Shown here piece by piece: positions 8,496-29,760 of a DNA stretch of 38,594 bases. Position numbers and translations under genes: made by a program. The stretch lies in NCBI GenBank assembly GCA_017470095.1, contig JAFUFC010000012.1:1-38594 (forward strand), written 5' to 3'. Positions within the stretch are counted from its first letter, which is position 1, and each line of letters starts with the position of its first letter. The notes below the pieces were generated by a model that was not told the DNA's origin, did no database searches, and saw nothing but the letters and a program-made list of their open reading frames with translations. This DNA is from Clostridia bacterium. Its GTDB lineage: Bacteria; Bacillota; Clostridia; Christensenellales; Aristaeellaceae.

Positions 8496-8557
8496 CTTCG
8501 CTGAACTCTGCCTGATTCGTAGGAAAAGAATAGATAAAACGAAAGGATGGAAGTTAC

Positions 8558-9682: not shown

Positions 9683-9741
9683 TCACAACAAGCAGTTACC
9701 ACCACTCTTACAACGGATGATATGATCATCCGACGACAGTT

Positions 9742-9784
9742 CTATGCCTTCGGGGGAGGATGATTTCCTTCTCCGAAGGCATAG
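9742..9784 (+). promoter_or_regulatory. Intercistronic hairpin between major pilin and sortase
   Basis: A perfect 12-bp stem (CTATGCCTTCGG / CCGAAGGCATAG) continues inward for up to seven more pairs including G-U, leaving a five-base loop. No T run follows, so it is not a standard terminator. It ends six bases before the GGAG of the sortase. It probably protects the upstream pilin message and/or lowers sortase translation, setting the high pilin to sortase ratio. Confidence 0.65.
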
Positions 9785-9801
9785 GCAATGGAGCATGAGC
9801 A

Positions 9802-10542
9802 GTGAAAAAAGCACTTGAGCGAATCGTGTATCTGCTGGATCACGCATTAAATTGCGCACTGATCCTGTTTGCTTTGATCGTTCTGTGTGTAAGCGGCTAT
9901 TCACTGCTGGACAATGCACAAATCTATCATTATGCTTCGGATACCTCACTGCAGCAATTCAAGCCCGTCGTCAGAGATGAGGAACGGAGCGACAGCAGCT
10001 TTGTTTTTCTCGATCATCAATCGGCGTGGCTCTGCATTGATAATACTTATGTTGATTATCCTGTAATGCAGGCCGAAAACAACTTTGAGTATTTGAACAA
10101 AGACCCTTACGGCGAATACCGGATCAGCGGGTCCATCTTTTTGGATTGGAGAAACGCCCCTGATTTTTCGGACGAATTCTCCATGATCTACGGACATCAC
10201 ATGGATCATTACAATATGTTCGGTTCGTTAGATTTATTCACCTCAGAAGCATATTTTCTGACGCATACTGCGGGATGGCTCGCAACCAGAAACGGAATAT
10301 ATGATCTGGAGCTGTTTGCTGTCGTGTGGGGAGATGCCAAAGATTACACGGTATTCAACCCGCAGGGGCGCATGGCTGCAGATGTATTGAGCTACATCGA
10401 GGATAAGGCTGAAATATATACAGCATATAAACCAGGCGCAAAGATCATTGCGTTATCCACCTGCGCCGGAGAAAACGAAACATCCAGACTATTGGTATTC
10501 GCCATGATTCTGGACAGAGATGAGGAGAAAGGAGCGCTATGA
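9802..10542 (+). CDS. srtB: Class B sortase (pilus polymerase candidate)
   Basis: A protein of 246 residues with an N-terminal membrane anchor (about 15-33) and a class B sortase domain. Catalytic residues are H132 (YGHHM), C221 (LSTCAG) and R229 (SRLLVFA). It starts at GTG; GGAG lies eight bases upstream, and the nearby ATG at 9795 runs into a stop. It directly follows the backbone pilin and overlaps the minor pilin start by ATGA. By context it polymerizes pilins through the VPTGV/PPTGV-type signals; substrate choice between this and the second sortase is inference. Confidence 0.88.
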   Translation: MKKALERIVYLLDHALNCALILFALIVLCVSGYSLLDNAQIYHYASDTSLQQFKPVVRDEERSDSSFVFLDHQSAWLCIDNTYVDYPVMQAENNFEYLNKDPYGEYRISGSIFLDWRNAPDFSDEFSMIYGHHMDHYNMFGSLDLFTSEAYFLTHTAGWLATRNGIYDLELFAVVWGDAKDYTVFNPQGRMAADVLSYIEDKAEIYTAYKPGAKIIALSTCAGENETSRLLVFAMILDRDEEKGAL

Positions 10543-14849: not shown

Positions 14850-16196
14850 TCAAGCGGCAACTGGCACGGGAATCATCCATTCCACCTGAAAGATGCCGTT
14901 CTGTTCATCAATCTGCAAAATGCCCTGATAAGACTCCACAATGCGCTTCAAATTACTCAAGCCGATGCCATGCAGGAAAGTATCCCGTTTGGAGGTGGAA
15001 AACAAACCGTCCTGTCGTTTCTTCAGCGTGCCCGCGTAGGGATTTTCGCATTTGACGATGATCTGCCCGCCGATCATTCCAGCGCTAAGATGGATACAGC
15101 GTTTTTCCTCCAGCAATACCTGCACTGCTTCCATGGCGTTGTCGATTGCGTTGGCAAACATGGTAACCACATCGGCATATCGGATGAAATCAGCTTTGGA
15201 GAAATCTACCATACACTCCAAGTCGATATCCTTTTCTTTACATTCCACCTGTTTTTGCGCAAGCAGCATATCCAGCACAGCATTTCCCGTATGAATCTGG
15301 GGTGTAACGGTATCGGTTGCCTGTAATATATCATTCAAATACTCATTGGCGGCGCTGGCGCTTTTGCTGTTGGCTGTCATGCCTTCCAGCACACGCAGAT
15401 GCTTGCTCATATCGTGATATATACGCCGTGCCTGTTCATCTGAAAGCTGCCTGTTTTCAAATTCCTGCACCTGCTGCTTCATCTGGTTCTCCATCCGCAG
15501 CAGCTTTACCTTTTCCCGCTGCAGCTGGAATTGCTTTTCCGTGGCAGCAAGGATACAAGGCATACCGAACACCAGCATCAGGGTCAGCAACGTCATTTCC
15601 AGAGAAATACCCGCCACCTGGGAAGATGGCGCTATAATCGTCAGATAATACAAGATTAACACCGTTGTATGATCGATGACCGCGGGCACCAGCGCCAGAA
15701 ACGCTTCTTTGGCCGTGATCTGCCGATCCGACGAAATATCAAAGGTATATTTCTGCATCAACACAATAGCCAGCACCCGGCAGGCGTTTTCCGCAAGCGT
15801 CACTGGAATTAGCGGAAAGGCATCCGTTACAGCGTAGCCGAAGGTGGGCAGATGCAGGGAAGCAAATACCACAGGGGTAAAAAGCTTGAGCCAGCCGCCC
15901 CATAGGAAAAAGACGATACTGGCTAAAAAGATTAGGTATTGCGCTTGCCCTTTCCTCCATGATAGCATGACAAAACAGGTCAGCACATATAAAAGGATGT
16001 TTCTCACCAAGGCTTCGCTTAAAGTATTTCGATTCAACACATACCGCTGGCCCAGCACGAAAATGATCATCAACAGCACGGAACCGATCCGCCAACCCCA
16101 GGCTTTCTCCCTTTTTCCCATGGCATGGGAAAAAAACAGAATCGACCATATCTTTACTGAGCAGTCAATCACATCCCGAAGAAAAGGAGCATTCAT
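14850..16196 (-). CDS. GHKL-type sensor histidine kinase (AgrC-like)
   Basis: A protein of 448 residues with about six to seven hydrophobic segments in the first 220 residues, a coiled-coil linker (about 235-265), and a kinase core with the YHDMSKHLRVLEG phospho-acceptor region. A GHKL ATPase domain follows, with N box FANAIDNAMEAV and GIGLSNLKRIVE. The start at 16196 overlaps the regulator stop (ATGA) and has GGAGGT upstream; the frame stays open to 16337, but that part overlaps the regulator. This architecture pairs with LytTR regulators and in relatives senses peptides or cell-envelope cues. It lies 82 bases upstream of the flavoprotein gene, which may be its target. Confidence 0.85.
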   Translation of the reverse strand: MNAPFLRDVIDCSVKIWSILFFSHAMGKREKAWGWRIGSVLLMIIFVLGQRYVLNRNTLSEALVRNILLYVLTCFVMLSWRKGQAQYLIFLASIVFFLWGGWLKLFTPVVFASLHLPTFGYAVTDAFPLIPVTLAENACRVLAIVLMQKYTFDISSDRQITAKEAFLALVPAVIDHTTVLILYYLTIIAPSSQVAGISLEMTLLTLMLVFGMPCILAATEKQFQLQREKVKLLRMENQMKQQVQEFENRQLSDEQARRIYHDMSKHLRVLEGMTANSKSASAANEYLNDILQATDTVTPQIHTGNAVLDMLLAQKQVECKEKDIDLECMVDFSKADFIRYADVVTMFANAIDNAMEAVQVLLEEKRCIHLSAGMIGGQIIVKCENPYAGTLKKRQDGLFSTSKRDTFLHGIGLSNLKRIVESYQGILQIDEQNGIFQVEWMIPVPVAA

Positions 16197-16909
16197 CTTA
16201 GCTGACCTCCCCAATGCTTCATCAGCACCAGCATAAAATCTTTCATCCGATGTTTGCTGACAGGGATCAACACCCCGTTCTTCATCAACACATCCGTTTT
16301 CATAAGTTGCTTCACATAGCGCAGATTGACCATGCATCCCTTATGACAGCGAAAAAAAGCGTGATCCCGCAATTCGTTCTCCAGGGTGCTGATGCCCGCA
16401 TTGGCCAGCGCCACAGTGCCATCCTGAAGCGTAATCTTTACATGCCCCATTTCCGTTTCGCAATACATAATATCCGAAATACGGAATTGCTCCGTTTGAT
16501 ATCCACAGCGCAGCACGATGGAAGCCTGGGCAGATTTTAGATGCTGCTCCACCGCTTCCGTCAGAACTTTGGTAAATTGGGCATAGCTGATTGGCTTTTT
16601 CAGGTAACGAAAAGCGGCCACCTCATATCCCTGCAAGGCGTATTCCAGGTAGTTTGTGCTGAAAATGATGATGTTGTTTTCATTATACTGGCGGATTTCC
16701 CGAGCCAAGTCAATGCCGTTCCATTCACCCATCTGGATATCAAGGATCAAAATATCCTCTTTAGCCAGATTTTCCGCCCGCATCTCCCTGGGATTTATCA
16801 GATAATTCCAATCCATGTGATGGATCTGCTCCGTTTCGTAGCGGGCAGCGAAATCTTTACATGCTGCAATGATTTCAGCATCATCGTCACAGATCGTGAT
16901 ATGAATCAT
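16193..16909 (-). CDS. LytTR-family response regulator
   Basis: A protein of 238 residues. The receiver domain has D8-D10, phospho-acceptor D57 (LILDIQM) and YLKKP. The LytTR DNA-binding domain runs from about 135 to 235 (ISDIMYCETEMGHVKI ... FFRCHKGCMVNLRYV). The start at 16909 has GGGGAG seven bases upstream; the longer reading to 16933 has none. It forms an operon with the kinase. LytTR proteins bind paired ~9-bp repeats; I did not find a clear pair in the window. Confidence 0.9.
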   Translation of the reverse strand: MIHITICDDDAEIIAACKDFAARYETEQIHHMDWNYLINPREMRAENLAKEDILILDIQMGEWNGIDLAREIRQYNENNIIIFSTNYLEYALQGYEVAAFRYLKKPISYAQFTKVLTEAVEQHLKSAQASIVLRCGYQTEQFRISDIMYCETEMGHVKITLQDGTVALANAGISTLENELRDHAFFRCHKGCMVNLRYVKQLMKTDVLMKNGVLIPVSKHRMKDFMLVLMKHWGGQLR

Positions 16910-17326
16910 GATTGTACTCCCCTCGTCATTCATGAATATTTGTGTATTTTTTTACCGCATCTAAGCTGCAGGAAAAGCAAACTTTCTGTTTCGCCTTGCT
17001 CATTATATCACAGATGAAGAAATCCGGCTATCTAAAATGAAAGCGCCACTCGATGTAAGAGCGACGCTTTGTAAACACATTGTTAGTGCATGGCTTACGA
17101 AATTATACTTTGTTACAATTTAGGTTCGTTTCCTTTTTGTTTATTTTCTTTGCCCCAATGTTTTCCTCACTTTCCCCCTGCACATCTTTTGACGACTGTT
17201 TTGTAAAGGGGAAAATCACGAATAGAACAATTTTGTAGGTATATTCTAATTCATAATAAACAATCCGCAAATTCCTATTATAGGGAATTGCGGATTACTC
17301 TCAGATTATCATTTCTTTTTTACATG
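16910..17326. other. Intergenic interval between LytTR operon and phosphorylase gene
   Basis: I see no gene in this AT-rich stretch of about 400 bases. It holds a hairpin with AAAGCG / CGCTTT ends (17040-17070) and the terminator at 17262-17296. The promoter of the LytTR operon should lie near 16930-17030, but no convincing boxes stand out. Confidence 0.5.
17262..17296 (-). terminator. Terminator after the phosphorylase gene
   Basis: The stem AATCCGCAA-ATTCC / GGAATTGCGGATT has one bulged base and a short AT loop. On the minus strand it is followed by a T-rich stretch (TTGTTTATT). It ends the alpha-galactoside enzyme operon. Confidence 0.7.
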
Positions 17327-18822
17327 TTAAGCCAGGGTGATGTTGAAATCATACGTCAGTAGATTCGCTTCCAGGGCGGCTTTGCCGTCTTGCTTATGCC
17401 AGGTCAATCGCAGAATGTGCTTTTCCGGCTGTTCGATCTGCAATTCCGCGTCAACGCCAAAGGCGGGGCAGGCGTTGCGCATTTTCAGCAGTTTCAGTTG
17501 CTCCTGCACGATGGGCCATTGCATGCGCTTCTCAATCTCTGCTTTTGAAAGATTCGTGCGGTTGATTTCCTTGTGACCTGCTTCGCCACCGCGCTGTACG
17601 GCCTCCAAATCATTTTCCCCTGCAAAGAGATCCAGATACCACACCTGGGGCTTCCCCGGCATAAACATCTGCAAAGCGCGGGCCAGCAGCATTTTTTTTC
17701 GTCGCATCCCAAAGCGCTGAAATAGGTGGCGTTGACCTGGTAGTACATATTCTTTTTGCCGTGCAGGTTCTTGATCAGCCCGCCCCGGCTGACGATCAGA
17801 TCGATAAGCCCCTGGATACGCTCGTCGGGCACCAGGCCTTTCAAATCCAGCAGCGGGATGCCGTCATGGCAGCCCAGCATGTTCACGCAGCGGATATCGT
17901 TTTCCTTTTGCTCCAGGGCCCAGCGTGCCAGATAGGTGGCGTCGTGGTTTTCGATGGCGTCGATCAGCAGCCCGGGCAGAAAAAAATCGTAGGTCATGTA
18001 TCCCTTTTGCGCCAGGGTTTTGTAGCTGCCCTCGCCGTAGGCGGCGTGGATCTCGGGCAGCAGGGTCAAGCCGCGCTGCTCGGCCATCTGCCGGATGCGC
18101 TCCAGGATTTCCCAGGTTTCGGGCTCATTCATGAAGTTGCGCCGTCCCGGGATCTTGGAGGCGTACCCGAAGGCGTCCAGCCGCACGATGGACGCCCCGT
18201 AGGAAGCCAGCTTGTCCAGTACTTCTTCGTAATACTGCCACACCAGGGGCGACTGGATATTCACATCCATCTGGCCCAGATAGCTGCGTTTGCCACTTTC
18301 CGGGTCTGTTTTCACCTCCTGATAGAAGGTGTTCCAGTACGGGATTTCTTTCCCATCGGGAAACTGCACCATCAGGATGGGCAGTCCCGGCTTGCGGAAA
18401 AACATATCCTGAATATACTGTTCGTCGGGCTGAATATAGCCCGATTCCGTCATGTGTCCCTTTCCTTCCCAAAACTTGTTCCAATCGATAAAGAAGTCCC
18501 GGTATTCCGAGGCTTCGCCCTTCTGGATCATATCCTGAAATTGCGGCGATTGCACGGACAGGTGGTTAAGGATAAAATCCAGCTTCAAATCCAGGCCCAG
18601 GGCCTGCAGGCGTTCCATATCGTCGGGAGAAGTGAGTTGCTTGTCCAGATCGTAGCTGATCACCGAAAAGCCCCGGTCCAAATCGGTGGTGAATACACTG
18701 GGCAGGATGTAAAAGGAGCGAAATGCTCCCTGCATTTCCTTCGTTTCCAGCAGAGATGCGATGTCGGTCAACGTGCCGCCCAGGCTGTCGGGATAGGCGT
18801 TGAGCATAGCGCCGCTGTGCAT
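17327..18822 (-). CDS. GH13_18 sucrose / sucrose-6-phosphate phosphorylase, frameshifted
   Basis: The enzyme family phosphorolyses sucrose (or sucrose 6F-phosphate) to glucose-1-phosphate plus fructose (or fructose-6-phosphate). Family landmarks are present: start NAYPDSLGG, nucleophile D216 (RLDAFGY), acid/base E257 (LLPEIHAAY), D320 (CHDGI), and YFSALG. The frame breaks in a run of eight A (minus strand, 17692-17699). The first frame would end at 17494 after unrelated residues; the correct continuation (MLLARALQMFMPGKPQVWYL) runs in the other frame to 17327. One added A restores about 497 residues, the usual family length. This may be a sequencing or assembly error, transcriptional slippage, or a real mutation. 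The sucrose-kinase-like neighbour favours the sucrose-6-phosphate enzyme. GGAGG lies seven bases before the start. Confidence 0.85.
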
Positions 18823-18835
18823 GGCTTTTCCTCCT

Positions 18836-19738
18836 TTATTCTTTCGCCATCAAAAGGCGGTAATCAGCGTAGGACAGTAATTCACCCTGCTTGCTCAGGA
18901 TGATTTTGGCCTTGTGCGCCTGAGCTTCCAGCTTCTTTTGCTCGATTTCCAGCACCATGGTGGTGAAGGCGCTGTCGATTTTGCCGTCCCGGTTCCGGGC
19001 GCGGCGATGGGCCAGGGTTTCAGCGGGGGTAGAATTGAGGAGAATGGGAATATCCACGCCTTCAATAAAATCGCTGTTGCCGTGGGTCCATTCCAGGATC
19101 AGCACCTGGATGTTGGAAAAATCCACCTTGTCGTACCATAATTCGGTGGTTTCCCGGCCCATGCGTTTGAGGTAAATGGCTTCCTCCCCCTGATGAAAAC
19201 GGGCCAGGATATCGGATACCTCGTCAAAATTGGTTTCATTGGGCGTGCCAAGATACCCCGTCAGCGCCCGGCGGCCCGATTGCTGATAGACAGCCAGCCA
19301 GGGAAGCGCCTGCGCCGCCGCTGGATCGGCATCCTTTTCTTCGCCCCACAGCCTGCGCAGTTGGGCGGACACATCGGCCGTAAGCAAATCATGATCCACC
19401 AGCCCATGCAGCCCGCCCTGGCGGTACACCCGCACCCGTTCGATATCGTTGTCCCGGGGGATGCGGCGGGGGTAATTATCGCCGCTCATCACATACGCGC
19501 CGATGCCGTCGTGATTCAGGTAATAGGCCAGCACCGAGGCGATCTCGCTTTTGCCCACGCCGCTGCCGCCGCATACGGCCATAACAGCTTTCTTATCCTT
19601 CGGCGCATCCAATTCCTCCCGCAAACGGGGATAGATGGCCTGGGCTTTTTGAATGTGTTCTTCGCCTATGCAGACTTTATCTCCGGGCATATCCCCGTGG
19701 CGAATATCCGCCGGAACAGCAGGAAATTGCAGCGACAT
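18836..19738 (-). CDS. P-loop kinase, sucrose-kinase-like (stand-alone AgaSK kinase domain)
   Basis: A protein of 300 residues with a Walker A motif GGSGVGKS (57-64) and a kinase fold of the uridine-kinase/APS-kinase type, including SGDNYPRRIPRDND and LILEWTHGNSDF. The sequence resembles, as I remember it, the C-terminal kinase half of Ruminococcus gnavus AgaSK, a fused GH36 alpha-galactosidase/sucrose kinase. Here the two are separate genes in the same order, 14 bases apart. It would phosphorylate sucrose released by the galactosidase and pass it to the phosphorylase downstream. The start at 19738 has GGAGGAGG five bases upstream; an ATG at 19756 overlaps the galactosidase stop. The kinase fold is certain; the substrate is inference from context. 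Confidence 0.75.
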   Translation of the reverse strand: MSLQFPAVPADIRHGDMPGDKVCIGEEHIQKAQAIYPRLREELDAPKDKKAVMAVCGGSGVGKSEIASVLAYYLNHDGIGAYVMSGDNYPRRIPRDNDIERVRVYRQGGLHGLVDHDLLTADVSAQLRRLWGEEKDADPAAAQALPWLAVYQQSGRRALTGYLGTPNETNFDEVSDILARFHQGEEAIYLKRMGRETTELWYDKVDFSNIQVLILEWTHGNSDFIEGVDIPILLNSTPAETLAHRRARNRDGKIDSAFTTMVLEIEQKKLEAQAHKAKIILSKQGELLSYADYRLLMAKE

Positions 19739-19752
19739 TTTTTCCTCCTCCA

Positions 19753-21945
19753 TCATGCTTCTTCCGAAATCAAATGAAGCTGGATCGCCGGATAGTCCCC
19801 TCTCAGCTGCCCAAAAGCGTATCCGCCATACAGCAGCGCCGAGCCGGGGTAGCTTTCCTCTGTGCCTTCCAAACGGTAAACCTGCCGGGGGTCCAGCCCC
19901 TGCAGCCGGATATACGGGAAGGGCCCGTTGGCGCGAATGTGGGTCATCACCAGATTCACCAGCGCTTCCTTTTGATCGGGCGATACGAACATCCAGGCTT
20001 CATAATCCTTGTTTTCATCCAGTTCTGATAGACGATAGTAGCTGCCCTCAGCAATCAGCGCTTCAAAGCGGTGATAATCGCTGATCTGCGCTTTGATCTG
20101 TTCTTTTTCTTCCTCCGTCAGTCGTTCGGGATTCAGCTCATATCCAAAGGTGCCGGATTGGGCTACGATGCTGCGTGTGGAAAGGGGCGTCATCCGGCTT
20201 GTCTGGTGATTGGGGGACGCGGACACGTGGGCCCCCATGGCAGAAGCGGGATAGCCATAGGAGGTGCCTCGCTGGATTTCCAGGCGCTCGATAGCATCCG
20301 TATCATCGGAACACCAGATTTGCGGGCAGTAGAACAGCATCCCGGCATCAAACCGGCCGCCGCCCCCAGAGCAGCCCTCGATCAGTAAATCGGGATACTT
20401 TTCCAGGAGTCTGGAAAGCAGCTGATAGGTGCCCATCATAAAGCGATGAGCCACTTCGCCCTGGCGTTCCGGAGGCAGCGCATGGGAATAGCAATTGGCG
20501 ATGGAACGGTTGAAGTCCCACTTGACATACTCAATTTTCGCATGATCCAGTACAGCGCACATGGCGTTAACCAGATAATCTACCACGTCCTGCCGGGACA
20601 TATCCAGCACCAATTGATTCCGGGCCAGCATGGGCTTGCGCTCCGGATCGGTGAGCGCCCAATCGGGATGCGCCCGGAAAAGTTCGGAATCCTCACTGAT
20701 CATTTCCGGCTCAAACCACAGGCCAAATTTCAGACCGATCTGATGAATCTGATCGGAGAGCGACTTCATGGAGCAGCCCAGCTTCTTCTCGTTAACCACC
20801 CAATCGCCCAGGCCGGAATTATCATCGTCCCGCTTGCCGAACCAGCCGTCGTCCAGCACCAGCATTTCCATGCCAAGCGCCTTGGCGGAGCGGGCGAAGC
20901 GCAGGATCTTTTCTGCGTCAAAGTCAAAATACGCCGCTTCCCAGCTGTTGATCAGCACGGGTTTCTTAGTCCCCCGGTACCGGGGATCAATCACCTGTTC
21001 CCGGATGATGCGGTGGTACTGATTGCTGAGGCCGTTGAAGCCTTCCGCGCTGAAAGATAAAATCGCTTCCGGCGTTTCAAAGGTATCGCCGGGCTCCAAA
21101 CGCCAGGCAAAGCCGTCGGGATGAATGCCCGTCACAATGCGGATGCTGCCCGCCTGATCCACTTCCATTTCCTCCAAGTGGTTGCCGGAATACATCAGCA
21201 TGAAGCCGTAGCAATCGCCCTGATGCTCGGTGGCGCGCCTGTCGCTGAGGATCACGAAGGGGTTGCTGTGGTGGCTGCTCATGCCCCGGCGGGAGCCGAA
21301 GGAAGTCGCGCCCTTGGGCAAATGCAGCCTTTCCGCCTGCCGCTCCATGCAATGGCGGCCATGAAAATGCAGCGCGTCGAAATCGCCGTACAGGAAATCC
21401 ACGCAGGCGGAAGCCGCTTTCCCAATCGTCAGCGTTTTTTTGCTTGTATTCTTCAAAATCACCGAACGGACGATCACATCCTGGGATGGAAACACATGAT
21501 ATAAAAGCTGCGCTTCCAGGCCGATCACATCGTCCCGCAGGGTGACGGTCAGCGTTTCACAATCCGCGCTTTCACGAATATAAGGCAGACCATGCAGTGC
21601 CTGGCGGCCTTTTTCAATCTGGAAATCAACGTACCGTAAGTCCACGCTTCGGCTGCCATTTTCGCTTAGCACCTGCACAGCAGGCAGGCGATAATCCCCC
21701 ACGCCGCTGCCGGAATATTCCTGGGGCAGGGTATCCAAAGAATAGCCCCGGCGGTCCCGCTGCTCGTAGGGATTGCCGGAAAATCCCCGATCACTGTAAC
21801 GGATCAGGTAATCCATATTGCCGCTTGTCTTTTCCCCGTAATAAAGGTGCAGCAGAACGCCTGCTTCGTCCGCCTTCATCTGGTAAAGAGAATGTGCCGT
21901 TTCCAGTGAAAATACGCCGGTAGGCTCATGAAATTGAATACTCAT
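19753..21945 (-). CDS. aga: GH36 alpha-galactosidase
   Basis: A protein of 730 residues, typical for AgaA/RafA-type GH36 enzymes. It has an N-terminal beta-sandwich (about 1-330), a TIM barrel (about 330-640) and a C-terminal beta domain. Nucleophile D477 is in YVKWDFNR; the acid/base is D547 or D548 in CSDDTDAIERL; LDDGWFGKR is the barrel substrate loop. There is no signal peptide, so it acts in the cytoplasm on imported alpha-galactosides such as raffinose or melibiose. The start overlaps the AraC gene by 20 bases, implying translational coupling, and the kinase gene follows. No strong ribosome site precedes it, consistent with coupling. Confidence 0.92.
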   Translation of the reverse strand: MSIQFHEPTGVFSLETAHSLYQMKADEAGVLLHLYYGEKTSGNMDYLIRYSDRGFSGNPYEQRDRRGYSLDTLPQEYSGSGVGDYRLPAVQVLSENGSRSVDLRYVDFQIEKGRQALHGLPYIRESADCETLTVTLRDDVIGLEAQLLYHVFPSQDVIVRSVILKNTSKKTLTIGKAASACVDFLYGDFDALHFHGRHCMERQAERLHLPKGATSFGSRRGMSSHHSNPFVILSDRRATEHQGDCYGFMLMYSGNHLEEMEVDQAGSIRIVTGIHPDGFAWRLEPGDTFETPEAILSFSAEGFNGLSNQYHRIIREQVIDPRYRGTKKPVLINSWEAAYFDFDAEKILRFARSAKALGMEMLVLDDGWFGKRDDDNSGLGDWVVNEKKLGCSMKSLSDQIHQIGLKFGLWFEPEMISEDSELFRAHPDWALTDPERKPMLARNQLVLDMSRQDVVDYLVNAMCAVLDHAKIEYVKWDFNRSIANCYSHALPPERQGEVAHRFMMGTYQLLSRLLEKYPDLLIEGCSGGGGRFDAGMLFYCPQIWCSDDTDAIERLEIQRGTSYGYPASAMGAHVSASPNHQTSRMTPLSTRSIVAQSGTFGYELNPERLTEEEKEQIKAQISDYHRFEALIAEGSYYRLSELDENKDYEAWMFVSPDQKEALVNLVMTHIRANGPFPYIRLQGLDPRQVYRLEGTEESYPGSALLYGGYAFGQLRGDYPAIQLHLISEEA

Positions 21946-22828
21946 CGCGATGCTTCTTTCTATATTGTTCTGGGCTCAGCCCGAATTTTTTACGAAAGAT
22001 TTTTGAAAACGCCAGCTGATCATTATATCCTACTTCTTTGGCGACCACATAGATCGGCACGTCCGTTTTTAGGAGCAATTCACGGCTTTTGTCCATGCGC
22101 ACCTGCATCAAATACTCCTGGGGAGATATATGCATTTTTTCTTTGAAAATGGCCGTCAAGTAGGTGCGGTTGATGCCGATGTAATCCGCCACGTCGCTTA
22201 CCTTGATCCCCGAATAATTGCTTTTCATGAATTTGGCCGCAAAGTTGACATAGTCCTCCACGGTCAAATCATTTTTATGACGGGCCCCTTCCTCGCTTTT
22301 TTCCCAGGATTCAATGGCCAGGGACAAGAACCGAAGCGCAAGGCTTGCACGATAAAATTCACTGGAGGGCTTCAGGTGCGGGCGTTCCAGGATATCCGTC
22401 ACCACGGAAGAAAACTCTGACAGGTCAATATTACAGTCCTGCACGTATACGCCGTCTGTAAACCCGGCAAAGGCCATATATTGGCCCGCCTTTTCCCCGC
22501 AATAGGTGATCCACACATAATACCAGGGGTCTTCCATATCTGCCTGATAGAAAATATCGTCCCTTTCCCTCAGCAGGAATAACTGCCCCTTGTGGATGTG
22601 ATATTCCTTTCCTTCGGCCCGCAGGATGCCTTTTCCGGACAGCACCACATGCAAATGATACCCTTCCCGGGAATTATGCGGATAGGCGTAGCCCGGCAGA
22701 CAGCGCTGGATGCCGCAGGTTTTCATATAGAATTCATCGTCTTTGTTGCGCAGGTATTCGATGCCATGGTAATTTGGCGATTTGAAAACAGAGGGACTTT
22801 CCACGGTCTGCCCGCTCTTTTCCGTCAT
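21926..22828 (-). CDS. AraC-family regulator of alpha-galactoside genes
   Basis: A protein of 300 residues. The N-terminal cupin sensor domain (about 40-150: HVVLSGKGIL, HKGQLFLLRERD) is joined to two C-terminal helix-turn-helix units (about 195-295: VSDVADYIGINRTYLTAIFKE, AKEVGYNDQLAFSKIFRKKFG). This is the MsmR/RafR-like layout, normally an activator that binds the sugar. GGAGG lies eight bases before the start. It leads the enzyme operon and is divergent in role from, but on the same strand as, the importer genes upstream. A palindrome at 22863-22904 in its leader is the best candidate operator. Confidence 0.88.
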   Translation of the reverse strand: MTEKSGQTVESPSVFKSPNYHGIEYLRNKDDEFYMKTCGIQRCLPGYAYPHNSREGYHLHVVLSGKGILRAEGKEYHIHKGQLFLLRERDDIFYQADMEDPWYYVWITYCGEKAGQYMAFAGFTDGVYVQDCNIDLSEFSSVVTDILERPHLKPSSEFYRASLALRFLSLAIESWEKSEEGARHKNDLTVEDYVNFAAKFMKSNYSGIKVSDVADYIGINRTYLTAIFKEKMHISPQEYLMQVRMDKSRELLLKTDVPIYVVAKEVGYNDQLAFSKIFRKKFGLSPEQYRKKHRDEYSIS

Positions 22829-22982: not shown

Positions 22983-23027
22983 AAAAATCCATTTTAATTT
23001 CCCCCACTGGGGGAAAATGGATTTTTA
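22983..23027 (-). terminator. Terminator of the ABC importer operon
   Basis: A long imperfect palindrome with outer stem AAAAATCCATTTT / AAAATGGATTTTT and inner stem CCCCC / GGGGG around ACT. It includes the stop codon of the permease gene and ends in a T run on the minus strand. It separates importer transcription from araC. Confidence 0.85.
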
Positions 23028-23951
23028 CCCCTTCACAGCGCCCAGCATGATGCCCTTGACGAAATATTTCTGGATAAAGGGATAGATCATCACGATGGGC
23101 AGAGTGGCTACCATGGTGGCAGCCATGCGGATGGAGTCAGGGGTCACGGTGGCTGCACTGGTCTTGCCCGCGGCCATCTGCTGGGAGGTGGATGCGCCGG
23201 TCTGGTACTGATTCAGAATTTCCACCAGGATAGACTGCATGGGCTTCAAATTCTGAGAGGAAGTATACAGATAGGCGTCGAACCAGCTGTTCCACTGATT
23301 GATCGCTACGAACAGCGCAACGGTCATCAGGATGGGCTTGGACAGCGGCAGGATGATCTTAAAGAAGATCACCAGGTCGTTGCCGCCATCGATGCGCACC
23401 GCCTCAAACAGAGAGGAGGGCATGGAATCGATGTAGGAACGGATCAGGATCATGTTGTACACGCTCATGACGTTGGGCAGGATGAAAACCCAGAAATTAT
23501 CCAGCAGGCCCAAGCCCTTAAGCACCATGTAATAAGGCACCTGGCCGCCGCCAAAGTACATCGTGAACACGAACAGCAAACTCCAGAACTTATGGCCCAC
23601 CAGATCCTTGCGGCTCAGCGGATAGGCCAGCATGGCCGTGCACATCACTGCCAGCGGCGTGCCGATCAGGGTACGGGCCACAGTGACCAGGATGGAATGC
23701 TGGAAGGTGGAGCGGCCCAGGATTTCTTTATAGCTGGCCAGGGAGAACACACGGGGCCAGAAGTAGATGCCGCCGCGCACAGCGTCTGTCGCGTCGTTGA
23801 TGGACACCACAAAAATATTCCAGAAGGGATATACTGTGATGATAGCGACAATGGCCAGGAAGAGAACCTTGAAGATATCCAGCACCCAGTCGCCCGGCGT
23901 CCTTTTTTCCTTGATGCGGCTGGGAATGGCTTTTTTGGTGATCGCAGTCAT
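23025..23951 (-). CDS. Sugar ABC transporter permease, LplC/YtcP type
   Basis: A protein of 308 residues with six membrane helices. The cytoplasmic EAA loop is EAVRIDGGNDLVIFFKIILP (about 190-210), contacting the ATPase. The N-terminal signature (IFKVLFLAIVAIITVYPFWNIFVVSIN) and length match the second permease of CUT1 importers of the LplABC kind. GGAGGAG lies before the ATG. It is the last gene of the importer operon. No ATPase gene is nearby, so a shared MsmX-like ATPase encoded elsewhere is expected. Confidence 0.92.
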   Translation of the reverse strand: MTAITKKAIPSRIKEKRTPGDWVLDIFKVLFLAIVAIITVYPFWNIFVVSINDATDAVRGGIYFWPRVFSLASYKEILGRSTFQHSILVTVARTLIGTPLAVMCTAMLAYPLSRKDLVGHKFWSLLFVFTMYFGGGQVPYYMVLKGLGLLDNFWVFILPNVMSVYNMILIRSYIDSMPSSLFEAVRIDGGNDLVIFFKIILPLSKPILMTVALFVAINQWNSWFDAYLYTSSQNLKPMQSILVEILNQYQTGASTSQQMAAGKTSAATVTPDSIRMAATMVATLPIVMIYPFIQKYFVKGIMLGAVKG

Positions 23952-23968: not shown

Positions 23969-24919
23969 TCAGAACAGTGCGCTGTCGTTCAGCTTGGCGG
24001 TGATCTTGTTGGTGCTCATCACCAAAATGAAGGACACGATGGATTTGAACAGGCCCACGGCGGTACCGTAGGAGTACATGCCTTTGGCCAGGCCGTAGCG
24101 GTAGGCGTAGGTGTCCAATACGTCGGAGTAATTGAGGATGGCGTTGTTGCCCATCAGCAATTGCTGTTCAAAGCCGGTAGAGAGGATTCCGCCCACAGCC
24201 AGGATCAGCAGTGTTGCGATGGTGGGACGGATGGTGGGCAATGTGATGTGCCAGATGCGCTTGATCCGGCTGGCGCCGTCGATGGAGGCCGCTTCGTACA
24301 ATTGCTCGTCGATACCAGAAATGGCCGACAGATAGATGATGGCGTTATAGCCCATGCCCTTCCAGGTGTTTGCGATGGCGATGATCCACCAGAAGTAGGG
24401 GCCGTGCTGGAAGAACAGGATGCGCTCCTTGATCAGCCCCAGGCTCATCAGTAAATCGTTTACCAAGCCGCCGCCGGACAGGAAGGTGAGGAAAATATTG
24501 GCGGCAATAACCCAGGAAACGAAGTATGGCAGGTAGGAAGCGGTCTGAATGAATTTCTTCAGCCTGATGTTCTTCAGCTCATTGAGCATCACGGCCAGGA
24601 TGATGGGGGCCGGGAAAGAGAACAGCAAGGTCAGCAGGCTGGTGGCCAAGGTGTTCCGCATGATCATGCCGAAATCCTTGTTGAAGAAATACTGGAACCA
24701 CTGCAGGCCGACGAACTTGCCGTTGAACAGATCATAGAAATATCCGTTCTGGGAAGGGCGGTAATTGGTAAAGGCCATATACAGGCCGGTCATAGGCGCA
24801 TAGCAAATCACCAGCACCCAGATCACGGCGGGAAGCATCAGCAGGAACAGATACTTCTGGTCCTTCAGCCTGCTCATTAACGGCTTTTTCTTTTTGCCGT
24901 CCATGGGGATGCTTGTCAT
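23969..24919 (-). CDS. Sugar ABC transporter permease, LplB/YteP type
   Basis: A protein of 316 residues with a basic N-terminus and six membrane helices. The EAA loop is YEAASIDGASRIKRIWHITLP (about 206-226). The motif APMTGLYMAFTNYRP near the first helix is typical of LplB-type permeases. AAGGAGG lies eight bases before the start. It is 17 bases upstream of the partner permease and is separated from the binding-protein gene by a 113-base gap with a hairpin. Confidence 0.92.
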   Translation of the reverse strand: MTSIPMDGKKKKPLMSRLKDQKYLFLLMLPAVIWVLVICYAPMTGLYMAFTNYRPSQNGYFYDLFNGKFVGLQWFQYFFNKDFGMIMRNTLATSLLTLLFSFPAPIILAVMLNELKNIRLKKFIQTASYLPYFVSWVIAANIFLTFLSGGGLVNDLLMSLGLIKERILFFQHGPYFWWIIAIANTWKGMGYNAIIYLSAISGIDEQLYEAASIDGASRIKRIWHITLPTIRPTIATLLILAVGGILSTGFEQQLLMGNNAILNYSDVLDTYAYRYGLAKGMYSYGTAVGLFKSIVSFILVMSTNKITAKLNDSALF

Positions 24920-25032: not shown

Positions 25033-26592
25033 TTATTTGCTGGCGACGGGTTCCAGGCCCCACAGCGCCAGACGGGCAAAGTAAGTTTCGGTCATGTAGG
25101 CTTCGATATCGGCCATGCCGGCGCTTTCCATGGCGGCAACCATTTCGTTGTACAGCGCATCGCACTGTTCCACGGAAGCGGCGTTGACCATGCGGGGATA
25201 GTACTGGTCGAACACGTCGATCACACCCTGATACATCAGTGCTTCCAGGGTGCTGCCGGCGGGCTCCAGCGCGGCGAATTCGGCGCTGTCATAGTAGCCG
25301 TTGGTCAGGTTCTGGTAGGCGTAGGTGGCGCTGCGGTCCTTTTCGTTGAACCAGATACGGCAGGTGGTGCCGTCATCGGGATGCACGTCGTTCTTGACGA
25401 ACCAGGTCCACTTGGTGATGCCGGTCTGATCCACGGTGTTGGAGGGGTCAGCCTGGTAGCGTTCCACGATGTCGCCGATGGGAGTGCGCACGCCGTCCAC
25501 AAAGTCCCAATCCTGGCCCTGGATGCCCCACAGCAGCAGGTCCTGGCCTTCCTGGGAAGCGCAGTAGTCGATGAACTTCACAGCGGCTTCAATGTTCTTG
25601 CAGTTGGTGGTGATGGCGATGGCGTCCCAGCCCAGGGAGGAACGGCCGGCCAGAGGCAGATCGGTGGTGGCGGCGTCATCGGCCACGACCTTGTAAGCCA
25701 GGTATTCGGCGTTTTCATTGGCGGAGGCCATCAGCGCGGCGGAGGGGGTCCATGTGTCCCAGTAAGCGCCGGCGAAGGCGAACGCGCCGTCGTTGGAGAG
25801 CTTCTGGTTGCGCAGCTCGCTGTTGTTGCCAGTCCATTCGGGATCCAGGATGCCTTCGCGGTACAGCTCGTTCATCTGGTGAATGGCGTCGATGAACTGC
25901 GGATCGCGGACGGAGAAGTACAGCTTGCCTTCATGCACATAGTATGGATAAATGTCGTTCATGCCGGCGAAGGTGCCGTTGATCAGGCCGCTGCCGGGCT
26001 CGCTGATCACCAGGGTGTTGCTGGATTCGGGATGGGCGGCCTTGTACCGTTCCAGCAGAGCCTTGAATTCGCTCCAGGTGAAGGGCTCGGCGGAATCGGC
26101 CCGCTCCTGGCCCACCAGGTTGATCATTTCGTCATAGCGGCAGATGAAGCCGTTCACTGGGTCGGGATCGTAGCCGTACCAGTTGGACAGGTAGTAGTTG
26201 TTGCCGTCGGAGTAGCGGGTCTTGTTCAGGGTGTCGCCGTACATGGCCACCACGTTGGGCATCTGATCCAGATAGTCGGAGAGGTTCACCAGAGCGCCTG
26301 CTTCGATGTACTGGTTCACGATGTCGCTGCCGCGGTCCATCAGTACGATGTCAGGGTAGTTCAAGCCGGCCAGCATCAGGCTCAGCTTTTCCCCGGGGTT
26401 GCCGGAGGGGCTGATCAGGTCGATCTTCACGCCGGTGCGTTCTTCCAGGGCTTTCGCCACGGGATCGTCGAAGGCGCGCACGCCGGAGTTCTTGTCGAAG
26501 AAGGAGATGGTAACGGCGTCATCCGCCAGGGCGGGAGCCATGATGGACAGAACCATCATCGCGGCCAACAGCAGGCCAACCAGTTTCTTCAT
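25033..26592 (-). CDS. Extracellular sugar-binding protein of the ABC importer
   Basis: A protein of 519 residues with a signal peptide (MKKLVGLLLAAMMVLS, cleavage near ALA-D) and no lipobox Cys at the expected place, which is unusual for a Firmicutes binding protein. The mature part is a family-1 extracellular solute-binding protein: VTISFFDKNSG start, VKIDLISPSG, and ADSAEPFTWSEFKALLERY. It captures an oligosaccharide and delivers it to the two permeases downstream. AAGGAGG lies seven bases before the ATG. The neighbouring alpha-galactosidase suggests raffinose-family sugars; related LplA-type proteins often bind uronide or complex glycans, so the ligand remains inferred. Confidence 0.9.
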   Translation of the reverse strand: MKKLVGLLLAAMMVLSIMAPALADDAVTISFFDKNSGVRAFDDPVAKALEERTGVKIDLISPSGNPGEKLSLMLAGLNYPDIVLMDRGSDIVNQYIEAGALVNLSDYLDQMPNVVAMYGDTLNKTRYSDGNNYYLSNWYGYDPDPVNGFICRYDEMINLVGQERADSAEPFTWSEFKALLERYKAAHPESSNTLVISEPGSGLINGTFAGMNDIYPYYVHEGKLYFSVRDPQFIDAIHQMNELYREGILDPEWTGNNSELRNQKLSNDGAFAFAGAYWDTWTPSAALMASANENAEYLAYKVVADDAATTDLPLAGRSSLGWDAIAITTNCKNIEAAVKFIDYCASQEGQDLLLWGIQGQDWDFVDGVRTPIGDIVERYQADPSNTVDQTGITKWTWFVKNDVHPDDGTTCRIWFNEKDRSATYAYQNLTNGYYDSAEFAALEPAGSTLEALMYQGVIDVFDQYYPRMVNAASVEQCDALYNEMVAAMESAGMADIEAYMTETYFARLALWGLEPVASK

Positions 26593-26635: not shown

Positions 26636-26664
26636 ATTATATGGTTATGTGTCGCGTCCGTCTA
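26636..26664 (-). promoter_or_regulatory. Candidate promoter of the importer operon
   Basis: On the minus strand TAGACG (26659-26664) and TATAAT (26636-26641) are separated by exactly 17 bases and lie about 45 bases upstream of the binding-protein start. A second TATAAT at 26680-26685 lacks a good partner. Confidence 0.6.
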
Positions 26665-26817: not shown

Positions 26818-28743
26818 CTATATTTTCTTGAGCAGCGCTGCATCCGTACCATCAAATGACCATACAAGGAACTGCGCATCGGACTGTACCTGTTTTCCGC
26901 TCCACACATCCTCATAGGTCCCACAGGGAAGGTTCGCTCGTTTCAGATCGACGGTCACGGTTTCCCCGACAGGCTTCCAGCAAAACAGGGCAACATAAAT
27001 TTGTCCATCTATTGTTGCTGTATAGGTATTGCACGCCGATCCTCCCGCCGCATCCACCGGACGGAATACCACGCCGCTGCGAGCGATGGCGTTCACCGCC
27101 GGATTGCCCACGATCTTTAAGGTGCGCTCTTTCGCGCCGGGCCTGCCGTAATCCTCCGACAGCAGCATCACGGAACCCGCGATCACGGCGGAGGTATACC
27201 TGGCCCGGGCCTCCCCTTCGGTGGAATCCTTCAGCATGCAGAAGCTGCGCTGCAAGACGATGTGATCCGGGTCGTTGAATTGGTACAACCTGCCGCCAGT
27301 CCACCAGGAATAAGTTTGGGCGTTGAGCACGTATTCGATATCCTCGGATAAACCGAAAGCGTCGCAGGAAAAGCGCCGGGCGTTGCCAAAGCCATAGGGG
27401 AACAGCGGTGCAATGGACAGGCTGATAAAGAAGGGCCTGCCGATTTTCTTTTCATCGTACAATTGTTCCAGCGTCCGATACCCGAAATCCAGCGCCTGTC
27501 TGCCGGTGCGGACGGCGGGATCGTGATGAATGCCCTCCATGCCGCCGTGACTGAGGAAATCGATTTTCAGGTAATCATAGCCCCAGTCGATGAACTGCCT
27601 GGCTTTCTTCTCCGTCCATTCCAGCCACAAGGGATGGGTCACGTCGTAGGGCACGGCCCGGTCGATGCGGGGCAGCGGTTCGCCCTTTTCATTTCGCAGC
27701 ACGATTTCCGCGAAGGTGTGCCCCGGCAGCAGCGGGATTTCCCGATCCAAGGGATAGAAGCAGGCAAAGGGAGCGTCATAGATGCCCGTCTTCTGCCCAT
27801 GGGCGTGCAGATTATCCTTGATGCGCAAGCGTTCCTCCTCCGAGATGCGCTGCCAGCCGCCGTCCAAATTGATGTAGGTTCCCCCGTGATTGTGGAAGCC
27901 CCGGGGCGTCAGTTCTTCCCGCACGAAATCCCCGCTGGCCCGGAAGTTTTCCGCGTTCAGGGTATGCGCCAGCCCGGCGTAGCTGTTGAAGCCAAAGGGC
28001 ACGCCCTGATCCCACATGCGGGGAGCTCTTTCTTTTGCCAGCGCGTCGGCGTACAGCTCCAGCAAATTGCGCCAATCTGCACCAAAGTTCACCAGGAAGC
28101 GAGAGGAGAATACCTCCGCTCCTTCGATTACGCCGTGAGGCGCGTAATCGTGGCTGCCCTCATCGCTGGCACCCTGGCCGCAGCGAGCCTCCAGGATACG
28201 GGCGTCCATGCCAGGGCAAGCGATGGCATTTTTCCATATATCAAAATTCATGGCTCCGATGAGCAGCCCTTCCCGTGTGTCCTCCTTCAAGAGCACCGTC
28301 ACGTCATAGCTCTTTCGTCCCGCCCGCAGCGCCGCGGTTTCATATCGCATCCACATGTCGTTATCATAGGGTGCCAGCAGCATTTTGGCCCCCAAGTCCC
28401 GCCATAAATAGGGCTCGTCCCCTTTCCCGTGGGCGATCAGCGGGATCAGGCGGTTGGATTTGACTGATGCGCCGTCATTCCTGGATATGCTGCATTGAAC
28501 AATCGCCCCGGCCTCGGTCACAGTCAAATATTCCGTCAGACGCAGTCCGGCCTCGTTTGCATAGGTCAAAGTCAATGTCTGCTTCTGTTTTTTAACGTCG
28601 ATCAACGCCGCTTGCCGGGTGTCGATCCGCTCGCCTGTTTCAAACTCCTCCGCCTGGGCGGATGCGGACAAAACAGGCTGCTCGTCCTGATACAAGGTAA
28701 AAATTCCTTTTTCATCTTCCTGCCACCGATAGCCGCTTGCCAT
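26818..28743 (-). CDS. Clan GH-D glycoside hydrolase (alpha-galactosidase-like)
   Basis: A protein of 641 residues. The start at 28743 has GGGAGG four bases upstream; the frame stays open to 29601, but that extension is antisense to the esterase gene. An N-terminal beta-sandwich (about 1-230) precedes a TIM barrel with YINLDGGWQ, and the probable nucleophile D395 in YLKIDFLSHG, as in GH27/GH36 enzymes. A C-terminal beta domain follows (VALFCWKPVGETVTVDL). There is no signal peptide, so it is cytoplasmic. Overall similarity to the GH36 enzyme at 19753 is low, so substrate and linkage may differ. It is divergent from the esterase gene. Confidence 0.75.
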   Translation of the reverse strand: MASGYRWQEDEKGIFTLYQDEQPVLSASAQAEEFETGERIDTRQAALIDVKKQKQTLTLTYANEAGLRLTEYLTVTEAGAIVQCSISRNDGASVKSNRLIPLIAHGKGDEPYLWRDLGAKMLLAPYDNDMWMRYETAALRAGRKSYDVTVLLKEDTREGLLIGAMNFDIWKNAIACPGMDARILEARCGQGASDEGSHDYAPHGVIEGAEVFSSRFLVNFGADWRNLLELYADALAKERAPRMWDQGVPFGFNSYAGLAHTLNAENFRASGDFVREELTPRGFHNHGGTYINLDGGWQRISEEERLRIKDNLHAHGQKTGIYDAPFACFYPLDREIPLLPGHTFAEIVLRNEKGEPLPRIDRAVPYDVTHPLWLEWTEKKARQFIDWGYDYLKIDFLSHGGMEGIHHDPAVRTGRQALDFGYRTLEQLYDEKKIGRPFFISLSIAPLFPYGFGNARRFSCDAFGLSEDIEYVLNAQTYSWWTGGRLYQFNDPDHIVLQRSFCMLKDSTEGEARARYTSAVIAGSVMLLSEDYGRPGAKERTLKIVGNPAVNAIARSGVVFRPVDAAGGSACNTYTATIDGQIYVALFCWKPVGETVTVDLKRANLPCGTYEDVWSGKQVQSDAQFLVWSFDGTDAALLKKI

Positions 28744-28771
28744 AAAATCCTCCCTGCCTTTCAAAAAATGG

Positions 28772-28800
28772 TTGACATATACGATTGGAGCCAATAAACT
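28772..28800 (+). promoter_or_regulatory. Candidate promoter for the esterase gene
   Basis: TTGACA (28772-28777), a 17-base spacer and TAAACT (28795-28800) lie about 85 bases upstream of the esterase GTG. The -35 box is perfect; the -10 box matches four of six positions. The opposite-strand glycosidase promoter must lie in the same short interval. Confidence 0.6.
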
Positions 28801-28884
28801 ATACTCATCATATAGAAAAAGCCTGCCGATGTACAGATGGAAAAATGTCGGGAAACCATTCGCTTTTTTGAAGGAGGTATTTTC

Positions 28885-29760
28885 GTGATTCCTGAAATCG
28901 CCCATTTGCCCATGAATCCCACATTGAAGGGCCAGGCGGAATTGATCCAGCACGTGATTTATTCTCAAAACGGGCAGGAACTGACGTTGATCCTGCCTTG
29001 GGCTCCTCAGGATGACCGCTCCAAAGTACCGCCCGTGCCCCTGATTCTGTTTGTACAGGGCAGTTCCTGGACCACCCCCAATCTGGGTTATGAAATCCCC
29101 ATGCTGTCTCACTTTGCCGAAGAAGGCATCGCAGTAGCCACCGTATCTCACCGCAGTGCCAACGACGGGTATCCCTTCCCCGCTTTCCTGCTGGATGTGA
29201 AGTGCGCCATCCGTTTTCTGCGGGCCCACGCCGCCGATTATGCCATCGACCCGGATCGTATCGTTGCCTTCGGCACGTCCTCCGGCGGCAATACCGTTTG
29301 CCTGCTGGGGCTGACCGGCGACGAGCCCGCCCTGAAAACCGAGGAATACGCCGATCAAAGCGATGCAGTCTGCGCTGTGGCATCCTGCTTTGCGCCTACC
29401 GATCTGCCGGCGCTGTTTGCGTATCTCAAGGACGTGCCGAATATGAACGCTGTCATGACAGCCTATTTCGGGCAGGATTCCGAAGCATGGGATCAGGTTA
29501 TGCGCACCTGGAGCCCTGTTTATCGTGTGCAACAGGGAAAGGAATATCCACCGTTCCTGCTGCTGCATGGCACCGGTGACCCGGTGGTGCCCTGCCAGCA
29601 AATGGACTCACTGTATACAAAGCTGAAAGAAGCCAAAACGGACGTCGCCGCTTATTACGTGGATGGTGCGGAGCATGAAGGCAACTTCTGGAGCCCTATT
29701 GTACGAAAAGTAATACAAGAATGGATAAGAAGTATTCTGAAATCGGTGGATTCAAAATAA
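28885..29760 (+). CDS. Alpha/beta-hydrolase fold esterase
   Basis: A protein of 291 residues starting at GTG, with AAGGAGG nine bases upstream; the upstream ATG at 28837 has no ribosome site. It has an alpha/beta-hydrolase fold: oxyanion region FVQGSSW, nucleophile elbow FGTSSGGN, catalytic Asp in HGTGDPVVP and His in GAEHEGNF. This is the BD-FAE/acetylesterase-like group. There is no signal peptide. Divergent from the clan GH-D hydrolase, it may deacylate imported decorated oligosaccharides. Its stop lies 15 bases from the relaxase stop, so the mobile element abuts it. Confidence 0.83.
   Translation: MIPEIAHLPMNPTLKGQAELIQHVIYSQNGQELTLILPWAPQDDRSKVPPVPLILFVQGSSWTTPNLGYEIPMLSHFAEEGIAVATVSHRSANDGYPFPAFLLDVKCAIRFLRAHAADYAIDPDRIVAFGTSSGGNTVCLLGLTGDEPALKTEEYADQSDAVCAVASCFAPTDLPALFAYLKDVPNMNAVMTAYFGQDSEAWDQVMRTWSPVYRVQQGKEYPPFLLLHGTGDPVVPCQQMDSLYTKLKEAKTDVAAYYVDGAEHEGNFWSPIVRKVIQEWIRSILKSVDSK

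What the first reader, a model, noticed from the sequence alone, without database searches (positions are those of the whole stretch)
17327..21945. Unfused alpha-galactosidase / sucrose kinase / phosphorylase trio (AgaSK-like pathway in pieces)
The GH36 gene, a P-loop kinase and a GH13_18 phosphorylase follow each other on one strand. In R. gnavus, AgaSK fuses the first two, and a sucrose 6F-phosphate phosphorylase has been described beside it. Here the kinase is separate, only 14 bases from the galactosidase stop, and a reading frame overlapping that stop (ATG at 19756) shows how little change a fusion would need. The route would yield glucose-1-phosphate and fructose-6-phosphate from raffinose-type sugars at low energy cost. 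The resemblance to AgaSK is from memory.
Basis: partly seen in the sequence, partly recalled or inferred. Interest (0 to 1): 0.8.

Follow-up and report, generated by a model that had tools for sequence, protein, structure and literature searches.

The report
Sucrose kinase paired with its phosphorylase
Three neighbouring bacterial genes, predicted to cut galactose off raffinose-type sugars, phosphorylate the sucrose left over and split that product with free phosphate, include a kinase gene that in nearly every related genome place we read sits directly before the phosphorylase gene, so the kinase likely makes the phosphorylated sucrose whose source had been called unknown.

Summary
The trio is real: on the minus strand a GH36 alpha-galactosidase, a separate P-loop kinase and a GH13_18 phosphorylase follow an ABC importer and an AraC gene; the phosphorylase frame breaks in an 8-A run. 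The kinase is a homologue of the AgaSK kinase domain (37% over 259 residues), not a uridine or APS kinase. An unfused trio was already reported for Clostridium sp. L2-50, so the arrangement is not new. The phosphorylase pieces carry the strict sucrose 6F-phosphate phosphorylase (SPP) signature. In 36 of 36 kinase places from overlapping surveys of 200, 398 and 391 genomes, SPP lies next downstream; GH36 is seen adjacent in 3. Elsewhere the kinase is fused to GH36, or to SPP in single ORFs that no paper I found describes. GH13_18 genes with no kinase beside them lack the signature (0 of 18). The 22 kinase-bearing genomes found in the window's family show no PTS EIIC. The kinase therefore most likely supplies sucrose 6F-phosphate, against the published 6-glucose assignment for AgaSK. 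No activity was measured. The same genome holds a second, intact kinase-SPP pair.

The parts
19753..21945 (-). GH36 alpha-galactosidase, 730 aa; catalytic Asp expected in KWDFNRS and CSDDTDA (roles recalled from the family)
   Evidence: Pfam; 2yfn AgaSK E 1e-248; alignment; motif places
18836..19738 (-). AgaSK-type sucrose kinase, separate gene, 300 aa (306 aa if started at 19756)
   Evidence: AF2 model pLDDT 92; PanK/PRK/uridine-kinase fold
19547..19570 (-). Walker A (GGSGVGKS); its G63, S65, G66, G68 and K69 are invariant in 20 of 20 aligned kinases
19478..19480 (-). invariant Asp of SGDNYP, the likely catalytic base by analogy with the PRK/uridine kinase fold
   Evidence: invariant; role inferred
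19280..19417 (-). segment (46 residues here) absent from 20 of 20 GH36-fused kinases read, from 2 of 13 kinase-SPP rows and from 2 of 37 unfused ones
17494..18822 (-). GH13_18 SPP-type phosphorylase, N-terminal piece; homologous up to the break near 17699
17327..17707 (-). GH13_18 SPP-type phosphorylase, C-terminal piece in another frame
17692..17699 (-). 8-A run at which the phosphorylase frame breaks; the only A or T run of 8 or more in the window
17770..17772 (-). codon of the residue equivalent to IcSPP Lys364
17737..17745 (-). YYQ of loop A, IcSPP 376-378
17570..17572 (-). codon of the residue equivalent to IcSPP Lys434
21926..22828 (-). AraC-family regulator
23025..23951 (-). ABC permease
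23969..24919 (-). ABC permease
25033..26592 (-). extracellular solute-binding protein (SBP_bac_1)
26636..26664 (-). promoter-like site (10 of 12) before the binding-protein gene; consensus match only
   Evidence: 13 such sites found in the region, 8.4 expected in shuffles
17040..17070 (-). terminator-like stem of 12 pairs after the phosphorylase; consensus match only
   Evidence: 17 such sites found in the region, 11.3 expected in shuffles

Best explanation
This operon encodes a predicted importer, an alpha-galactosidase, a separate AgaSK-type sucrose kinase and an SPP-type phosphorylase that would together turn raffinose-type sugars into galactose, glucose 1-phosphate and fructose 6-phosphate, the kinase likely phosphorylating sucrose on the fructose side so that its product is the phosphorylase's substrate. 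Steps shown by sequence: gene order; homology of the GH36 and the kinase to AgaSK; the strict SPP signature across the two phosphorylase pieces; kinase-SPP linkage in relatives. Steps inferred: uptake of raffinose-type sugars, the kinase's substrate and its 6F position, one ATP spent per sucrose. The unit that evolution keeps together is kinase plus SPP; GH36 is an optional addition. In this contig the local SPP is frame-broken, so its work may fall to the intact copy on contig C103 of the same genome.
For: Kinase to AgaSK-type kinase domain (L009, GH36 98% identical to 2yfn, one 938-aa ORF): 37% over 259 aa, tblastn E 6e-48 against the fetched loci. SPP next downstream on the same strand in 36 of 36 kinase places (window included; one runs off its contig) from overlapping surveys of 200, 398 and 391 genomes (read); GH36 adjacent in 3 of 36, two of the 36 having under 300 bases of upstream sequence. 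In the GH36-anchored set of 80 loci, 24 hold a kinase match and 23 of these an SPP right after it: 16 GH36-kinase ORFs, 5 kinase-SPP ORFs, 2 fully split; the 24th (L012) has a stop before a kinase remnant and no SPP. Protein database: 7 kinase-SPP fusions and 20 GH36-kinase fusions among 29 hits. A 55-row quick tree needs 2 changes for GH36-kinase and 4 for kinase-SPP; starred branches (SH-aLRT 95 or more) force at least 2 each. Signature Lys364, YYQ and Lys434: 57 of 57 kinase-linked loci that could be read and 7 of 7 fusion proteins; in GH13_18 genes with no kinase beside them, Lys434 and YYQ in 0 of 18. PTS EIIC in 0 of the 22 kinase-bearing genomes of the window's family. 7 of the 24 genomes tested have kinase and SPP but no GH32, and none of the 7 shows EIIC.
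Against: PMC7688924 states that AgaSK makes sucrose-6-glucose-phosphate, resting on Bruel 2011, which is not held, so the strength of that assignment is unseen. 17 of the 24 genomes do have GH32, and the window's own genome has two GH32 genes over the sucrose-6-phosphate hydrolase cut-off (8 of 24 genomes have one), a possible sink for the 6G product. The 2 of 24 genomes outside the window's family do have EIIC. Several genomes are incomplete drafts (68-97% in the family), so single absences are weak. The signature follows one clade, so its rows are not independent. The window's SPP is frame-broken. Nothing was assayed.
Confidence: 0.78

Rival explanations
1. Published model: the kinase makes sucrose 6-glucose-phosphate, which a GH32 sucrose-6-phosphate hydrolase splits, while SPP acts on sucrose 6F-phosphate that comes in from outside or by a PTS.
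For: Stated in PMC7688924 and drawn in PMC6521584; the window's genome has two scrB-type GH32 genes.
Against: Does not explain 36 of 36 kinase-SPP adjacency, single-ORF kinase-SPP fusions, no PTS EIIC in 22 of 22 kinase-bearing family genomes, or 7 of 24 genomes with the pair and no GH32.
Confidence: 0.14
2. The kinase acts on another acceptor, such as fructose, and the GH13_18 enzyme works on plain sucrose.
For: The nearest folds are broad: pantothenate, uridine and phosphoribulo-kinases and one putative fructose transport kinase.
Against: The AgaSK homologue phosphorylates sucrose (PMC7688924), and the partner enzyme has the signature of phosphorylases strict for sucrose 6F-phosphate.
Confidence: 0.06
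3. The locus is decaying in this strain: the phosphorylase break is a true mutation, and only GH36 and the kinase still work here, the C103 copy supplying the phosphorylase.
For: The 442-aa broken protein is held as 2 member sequences on 3 contigs up to 39049 bases; an intact 509-aa copy lies on C103.
Against: The break lies in the only A or T run of 8 in the window, where sequencing and assembly errors are common (recalled); each piece is open over its homologous part; whether the contigs are independent samples is unknown.
Confidence: 0.4
4. The 8-A run is a slippery site and the full phosphorylase is made by transcriptional or ribosomal slippage.
For: Runs of 8 or more A are known slippage sites (recalled).
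Against: Not conserved: the longest A run at this place is 1 to 7 in the 35 of 37 relatives that could be read, all in frame there.
Confidence: 0.07

Closest known systems
AgaSK, alpha-galactosidase/sucrose kinase of Ruminococcus gnavus E1 (2YFN; PMC7688924)
   Same: GH36 and kinase both homologous, followed by an spp gene, behind an ABC importer and an AraC regulator
   Different: two genes instead of one; the kinase keeps a 46-residue segment and a longer N-terminus that GH36-fused kinases lack (P0249 keeps part of the N-terminus); 6F product proposed instead of the reported 6G
Clostridium sp. L2-50 locus with separate alpha-galactosidase and kinase (PMC6521584, PMC7688924)
   Same: unfused trio, the nearest described arrangement
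   Different: its sequence was not compared here; the window's phosphorylase is frame-broken and its genome has a second kinase-SPP pair
RgSPP and IcSPP, strict sucrose 6F-phosphate phosphorylases (6S9U; PMC6720575)
   Same: GH13_18, KxxYYQ loop A, Lys364, Lys434, Arg152, catalytic Asp, Glu and Asp
   Different: split over two frames in this contig; intact on C103
Type I pantothenate, phosphoribulo- and uridine kinases
   Different: 11-18% identity in the first 16 rows; sequence scores far below family cut-offs

Membership tests
AgaSK (GH36-sucrose kinase) | GH36 domain homologous to 2yfn | tested here: met
   E 1e-248 over residues 3-723
AgaSK (GH36-sucrose kinase) | kinase homologous to the AgaSK C-terminal domain | tested here: met
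   37% over 259 aa against L009, used as stand-in because its GH36 is 98% identical to 2yfn; the R. gnavus gene itself was not retrieved
AgaSK (GH36-sucrose kinase) | both domains in one polypeptide | tested here: not met
   separate ORFs; so AgaSK-like, not an AgaSK
AgaSK (GH36-sucrose kinase) | ATP-dependent sucrose phosphorylation | not testable with these tools
   needs an assay
Strict sucrose 6F-phosphate phosphorylase (IcSPP/RgSPP clade of GH13_18) | closest to IcSPP among solved GH13_18 structures | tested here: met
   6s9u E 6e-137, next 1e-60
Strict sucrose 6F-phosphate phosphorylase (IcSPP/RgSPP clade of GH13_18) | KxxYYQ, Lys364, Lys434, Arg152 and the catalytic triad | tested here: met
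   read on the two pieces apart
Strict sucrose 6F-phosphate phosphorylase (IcSPP/RgSPP clade of GH13_18) | one open reading frame | tested here: not met
   frame break at 17692-17699; the C103 copy is intact
Strict sucrose 6F-phosphate phosphorylase (IcSPP/RgSPP clade of GH13_18) | activity on sucrose 6F-phosphate only | not testable with these tools
   needs an assay
APS or uridine kinase | score over the family cut-off | tested here: not met
   APS kinase NF003013 21 bits against 163 and no uridine kinase model at E 0.001; no Pfam hit at E 0.001
PRK/uridine kinase/PanK fold group | shared fold with Walker A | tested here: met
Rgaga1-like locus | regulator, ABC importer, alpha-galactosidase/kinase, spp together, spp last | tested here: met
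   no importer ATPase among the window genes scanned; here the regulator lies between importer and GH36

The most novel reading that the evidence does not exclude
The AgaSK-type kinase is a sucrose 6F-kinase that exists to feed the strict 6F-phosphate phosphorylase: kinase plus phosphorylase form a self-contained, PTS-free sucrose entry route in Clostridia and beyond, fused more than once to either neighbour, and the published 6-glucose assignment for AgaSK is wrong. This names the missing source of sucrose 6F-phosphate.
Probability: 0.72. Interest if true: 0.66.

Novelty: new member of a known kind. Interest (0 to 1): 0.52.

Why it matters
[quoted passage not shown] The linkage, the fusions and the missing PTS found here turn this mismatch into a one-tube test. 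If the kinase is 6F-specific, cells would get two hexose phosphates from sucrose for one ATP without PTS or invertase, and kinase proteins now named 'adenylylsulfate kinase' in public records (for example P0004, P0007, P0061, P0085) would be renamed.

Tried and rejected
Uridine or APS kinase: rejected on sequence scores; the fold is of that broad group, which shows no function. The best sequence match among solved structures is chance-level (SRP54, E 0.004); the AgaSK entry there is 720 residues long and stops before the kinase. Programmed frameshift at the 8-A run: rejected, not conserved. Fusion by simple stop loss: rejected (frames differ; GH36-fused kinases lack the segment). Plain sucrose phosphorylase: rejected on signature. 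No RNA family in the window at gathering scores. Bruel et al. 2011 is not held, so how the 6-glucose position was assigned could not be read; the 2020 paper names the product S6P by mass spectrometry. R. gnavus itself was not among the 80 loci kept of 258, so a Roseburia porci locus stood in. The I. coccineus genome context was not reached. In one search two no-kinase rows (L158, L159) have K, Y, Y, Q in the aligned columns but read KSYQ and KAYQ in their own sequence and have Arg at 434; I count them as lacking YYQ. L078 has Gln in place of Lys373; Lys373 is not in my count. One GH13_18 copy (G008 C65:7194) was not read. Six of the 18 rows with no kinase beside them, and the second copy in L124, come from genomes that have the kinase elsewhere. 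PTS EIIC was not tested in the Lachnospiraceae with fused AgaSK.

That kinase-SPP fusion is not in print rests, in an open-licence PMC library only, mostly as listings. Papers seen: PMC6521584 abstract, first part of results, section 21 and passages; PMC7688924 abstract and sections 3, 4 (part 1), 11, 13, 15; PMC6720575 abstract and section 4; PMC10112845 and PMC7178133 passages only.
Full report
Observation. On the minus strand of the window lie, in order, an ABC binding protein, two permeases, an AraC regulator, a GH36 enzyme, a P-loop kinase and a GH13_18 enzyme. A promoter-like site precedes the first gene and a terminator-like stem follows the last (consensus matches only, found about one and a half times as often as in shuffles). 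The GH36 gene is closest to AgaSK among solved structures. The kinase begins 14 bases after the GH36 stop, behind a GGAGGAGG, or overlaps that stop from the ATG at 19756. The phosphorylase is in two frames that break in an 8-A run; each piece matches its own part of IcSPP.

What the kinase is. It has no Pfam family at E 0.001 and weak APS kinase scores. To compare it with AgaSK I searched named genomes with the AgaSK GH36 sequence (80 of 258 relatives kept). In L009 (Roseburia porci, GH36 98% identical to 2yfn) GH36 and kinase are one 938-aa ORF; the window kinase matches that kinase part at 37% over 259 residues. In an alignment of 20 kinases the Walker A residues, the Asp of SGDNYP, E, W, T and H of EWTH and the R, R, R and D of the final RxxRxRD are invariant across fused and unfused forms. 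A segment (window residues 114-159) is missing in 20 of 20 GH36-fused kinases read (16 loci, 4 proteins), in 2 of 13 kinase-SPP rows (P0247, P0269) and in 2 of 37 unfused ones (L135, L187), window included. The model (pLDDT 92) has the fold of pantothenate, uridine and phosphoribulo-kinases.

What travels with the kinase. Surveys at E 1e-20 found the kinase in 22 of 200 genomes of the window's family, 3 of 398 of the phylum and 14 of 391 of the class, G000 counted each time and G341 and G515 twice: 35 genomes, 36 places. In 36 of 36, GH13_18 is next downstream on the same strand (window); in one (L133) it runs off the contig. The 35 other kinases have no stop inside. GH36 is directly upstream in 3 of 36 (window, L137, L185); two places (L117, L130) have under 300 bases of upstream sequence, so GH36 there is not excluded. 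In the 80 GH36-anchored loci, 24 have a kinase match: 16 as a GH36-kinase ORF, 5 (L043, L062, L077, L079, L088) as a kinase-SPP ORF behind a separate GH36, 2 split in three (L047, L078), and 1 (L012) with a stop before a kinase remnant and no SPP within the stretch read. A protein-database search scored on the kinase part gave 29 proteins: 20 GH36-kinase, 7 kinase-SPP, 2 unclear (domains of some). The quick tree needs at least two origins for each fusion type by its starred branches; it has SH-aLRT support only, and four rows are long, so their place is unsure.

Does the partner fit? In IcSPP the residues that matter most for fructose 6-phosphate are Lys434, Lys364, Arg152 and Tyr377. Lys364, YYQ and Lys434 are present in 57 of 57 kinase-linked loci that could be read (23 family and phylum, 11 class, 16 GH36-kinase, 5 kinase-SPP, 2 split; L133 too short) and in 7 of 7 fusion proteins; the window has them across its two pieces. 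The 18 GH13_18 genes of the same family that have no kinase beside them all have Arg at 434 and none reads YYQ. Of the 200 family genomes, 32 hold GH13_18 at E 1e-60: the 22 with the kinase, and 10 without it whose copies lack the signature. So kinase and signature go together, with the caution that the signature marks one clade.

Where does sucrose 6F-phosphate come from? The literature leaves this open and gives the AgaSK product as sucrose-6-glucose-phosphate; RgSPP was strict for the 6F isomer against plain sucrose, and I saw no test of it on the 6G isomer. PTS EIIC gives no match in the 22 kinase-bearing genomes of the window's family, while the same search rings in 7 of 14 control genomes and in the 2 other-family genomes tested. 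GH32 gives no match in 7 of 24, all 7 at 90% completeness or more. Against this, 17 of 24 have GH32, and G000 itself has two scrB-type GH32 genes. The simplest reading is that the kinase makes the 6F isomer. This is inference from linkage, fusion and gene absence, not a measurement.

State of the window copy. G000 carries a second kinase-SPP pair on C103 (kinase 84% identical, SPP intact, no GH36 beside it). The two kinase-SPP stretches align at 83% DNA identity over 2298 bases. The break may be an assembly error or a true mutation; among the 120 proteins listed no near-identical intact copy appears (next best identities 78-87%).

Novelty. Unfused kinase and GH36 beside spp are known from Clostridium sp. 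L2-50, so the window is a new member of a known kind. Additions here: kinase-SPP as the constant core, kinase-SPP fusion proteins, the segment that goes with freedom from GH36, and the case against the published regiochemistry.

Noticed in passing
L003:2834-10848 (G000 C103): Second kinase-SPP operon of the same genome, without GH36 but with a DUF3502 binding protein, two permeases, a NIF3-family gene and a PF00756 esterase. Matches to that esterase lie in 9 of the 35 kinase-SPP stretches fetched (L003, L120, L124-L127, L180, L181, L187). Acylated sucrose as food is a guess.
   Followed up: partly
L043:7197-9599, L062:7474-9828, L077:7243-9612, L079:7437-9794, L088:7249-9588: Single ORFs that join kinase and SPP, behind a separate GH36; also P0241-P0243, P0246-P0248 and P0269.
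   Followed up: yes
L143-L150: GH13_18 genes at 45-51% identity to the C103 SPP, no kinase beside them, Lys at 364 but VYQ and Arg at 434: a group whose specificity I did not look up.
   Followed up: partly
P0003: Database protein that reads like the window kinase up to its last part and like the C103 copy after it: a recombinant or a chimeric contig.
   Followed up: no
L135 and L187: Unfused kinases that lack the 46-residue segment otherwise missing from GH36-fused kinases.
   Followed up: partly
window 5423-10542: Large protein with FctA and DUF7601 domains, and a sortase downstream: looks like a pilin or surface-protein cluster.
   Followed up: no
window 26818-29601: 927-aa ORF upstream of the binding-protein gene with no Pfam match at E 0.001.
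   Followed up: no
window 14850-16933: Sensor kinase and LytTR response regulator next to the sugar operon on the same strand.
   Followed up: no
G000 C103:74940-77042 (L138): Second GH36 of the genome, 43% identical to the window's and not beside a kinase.
   Followed up: no
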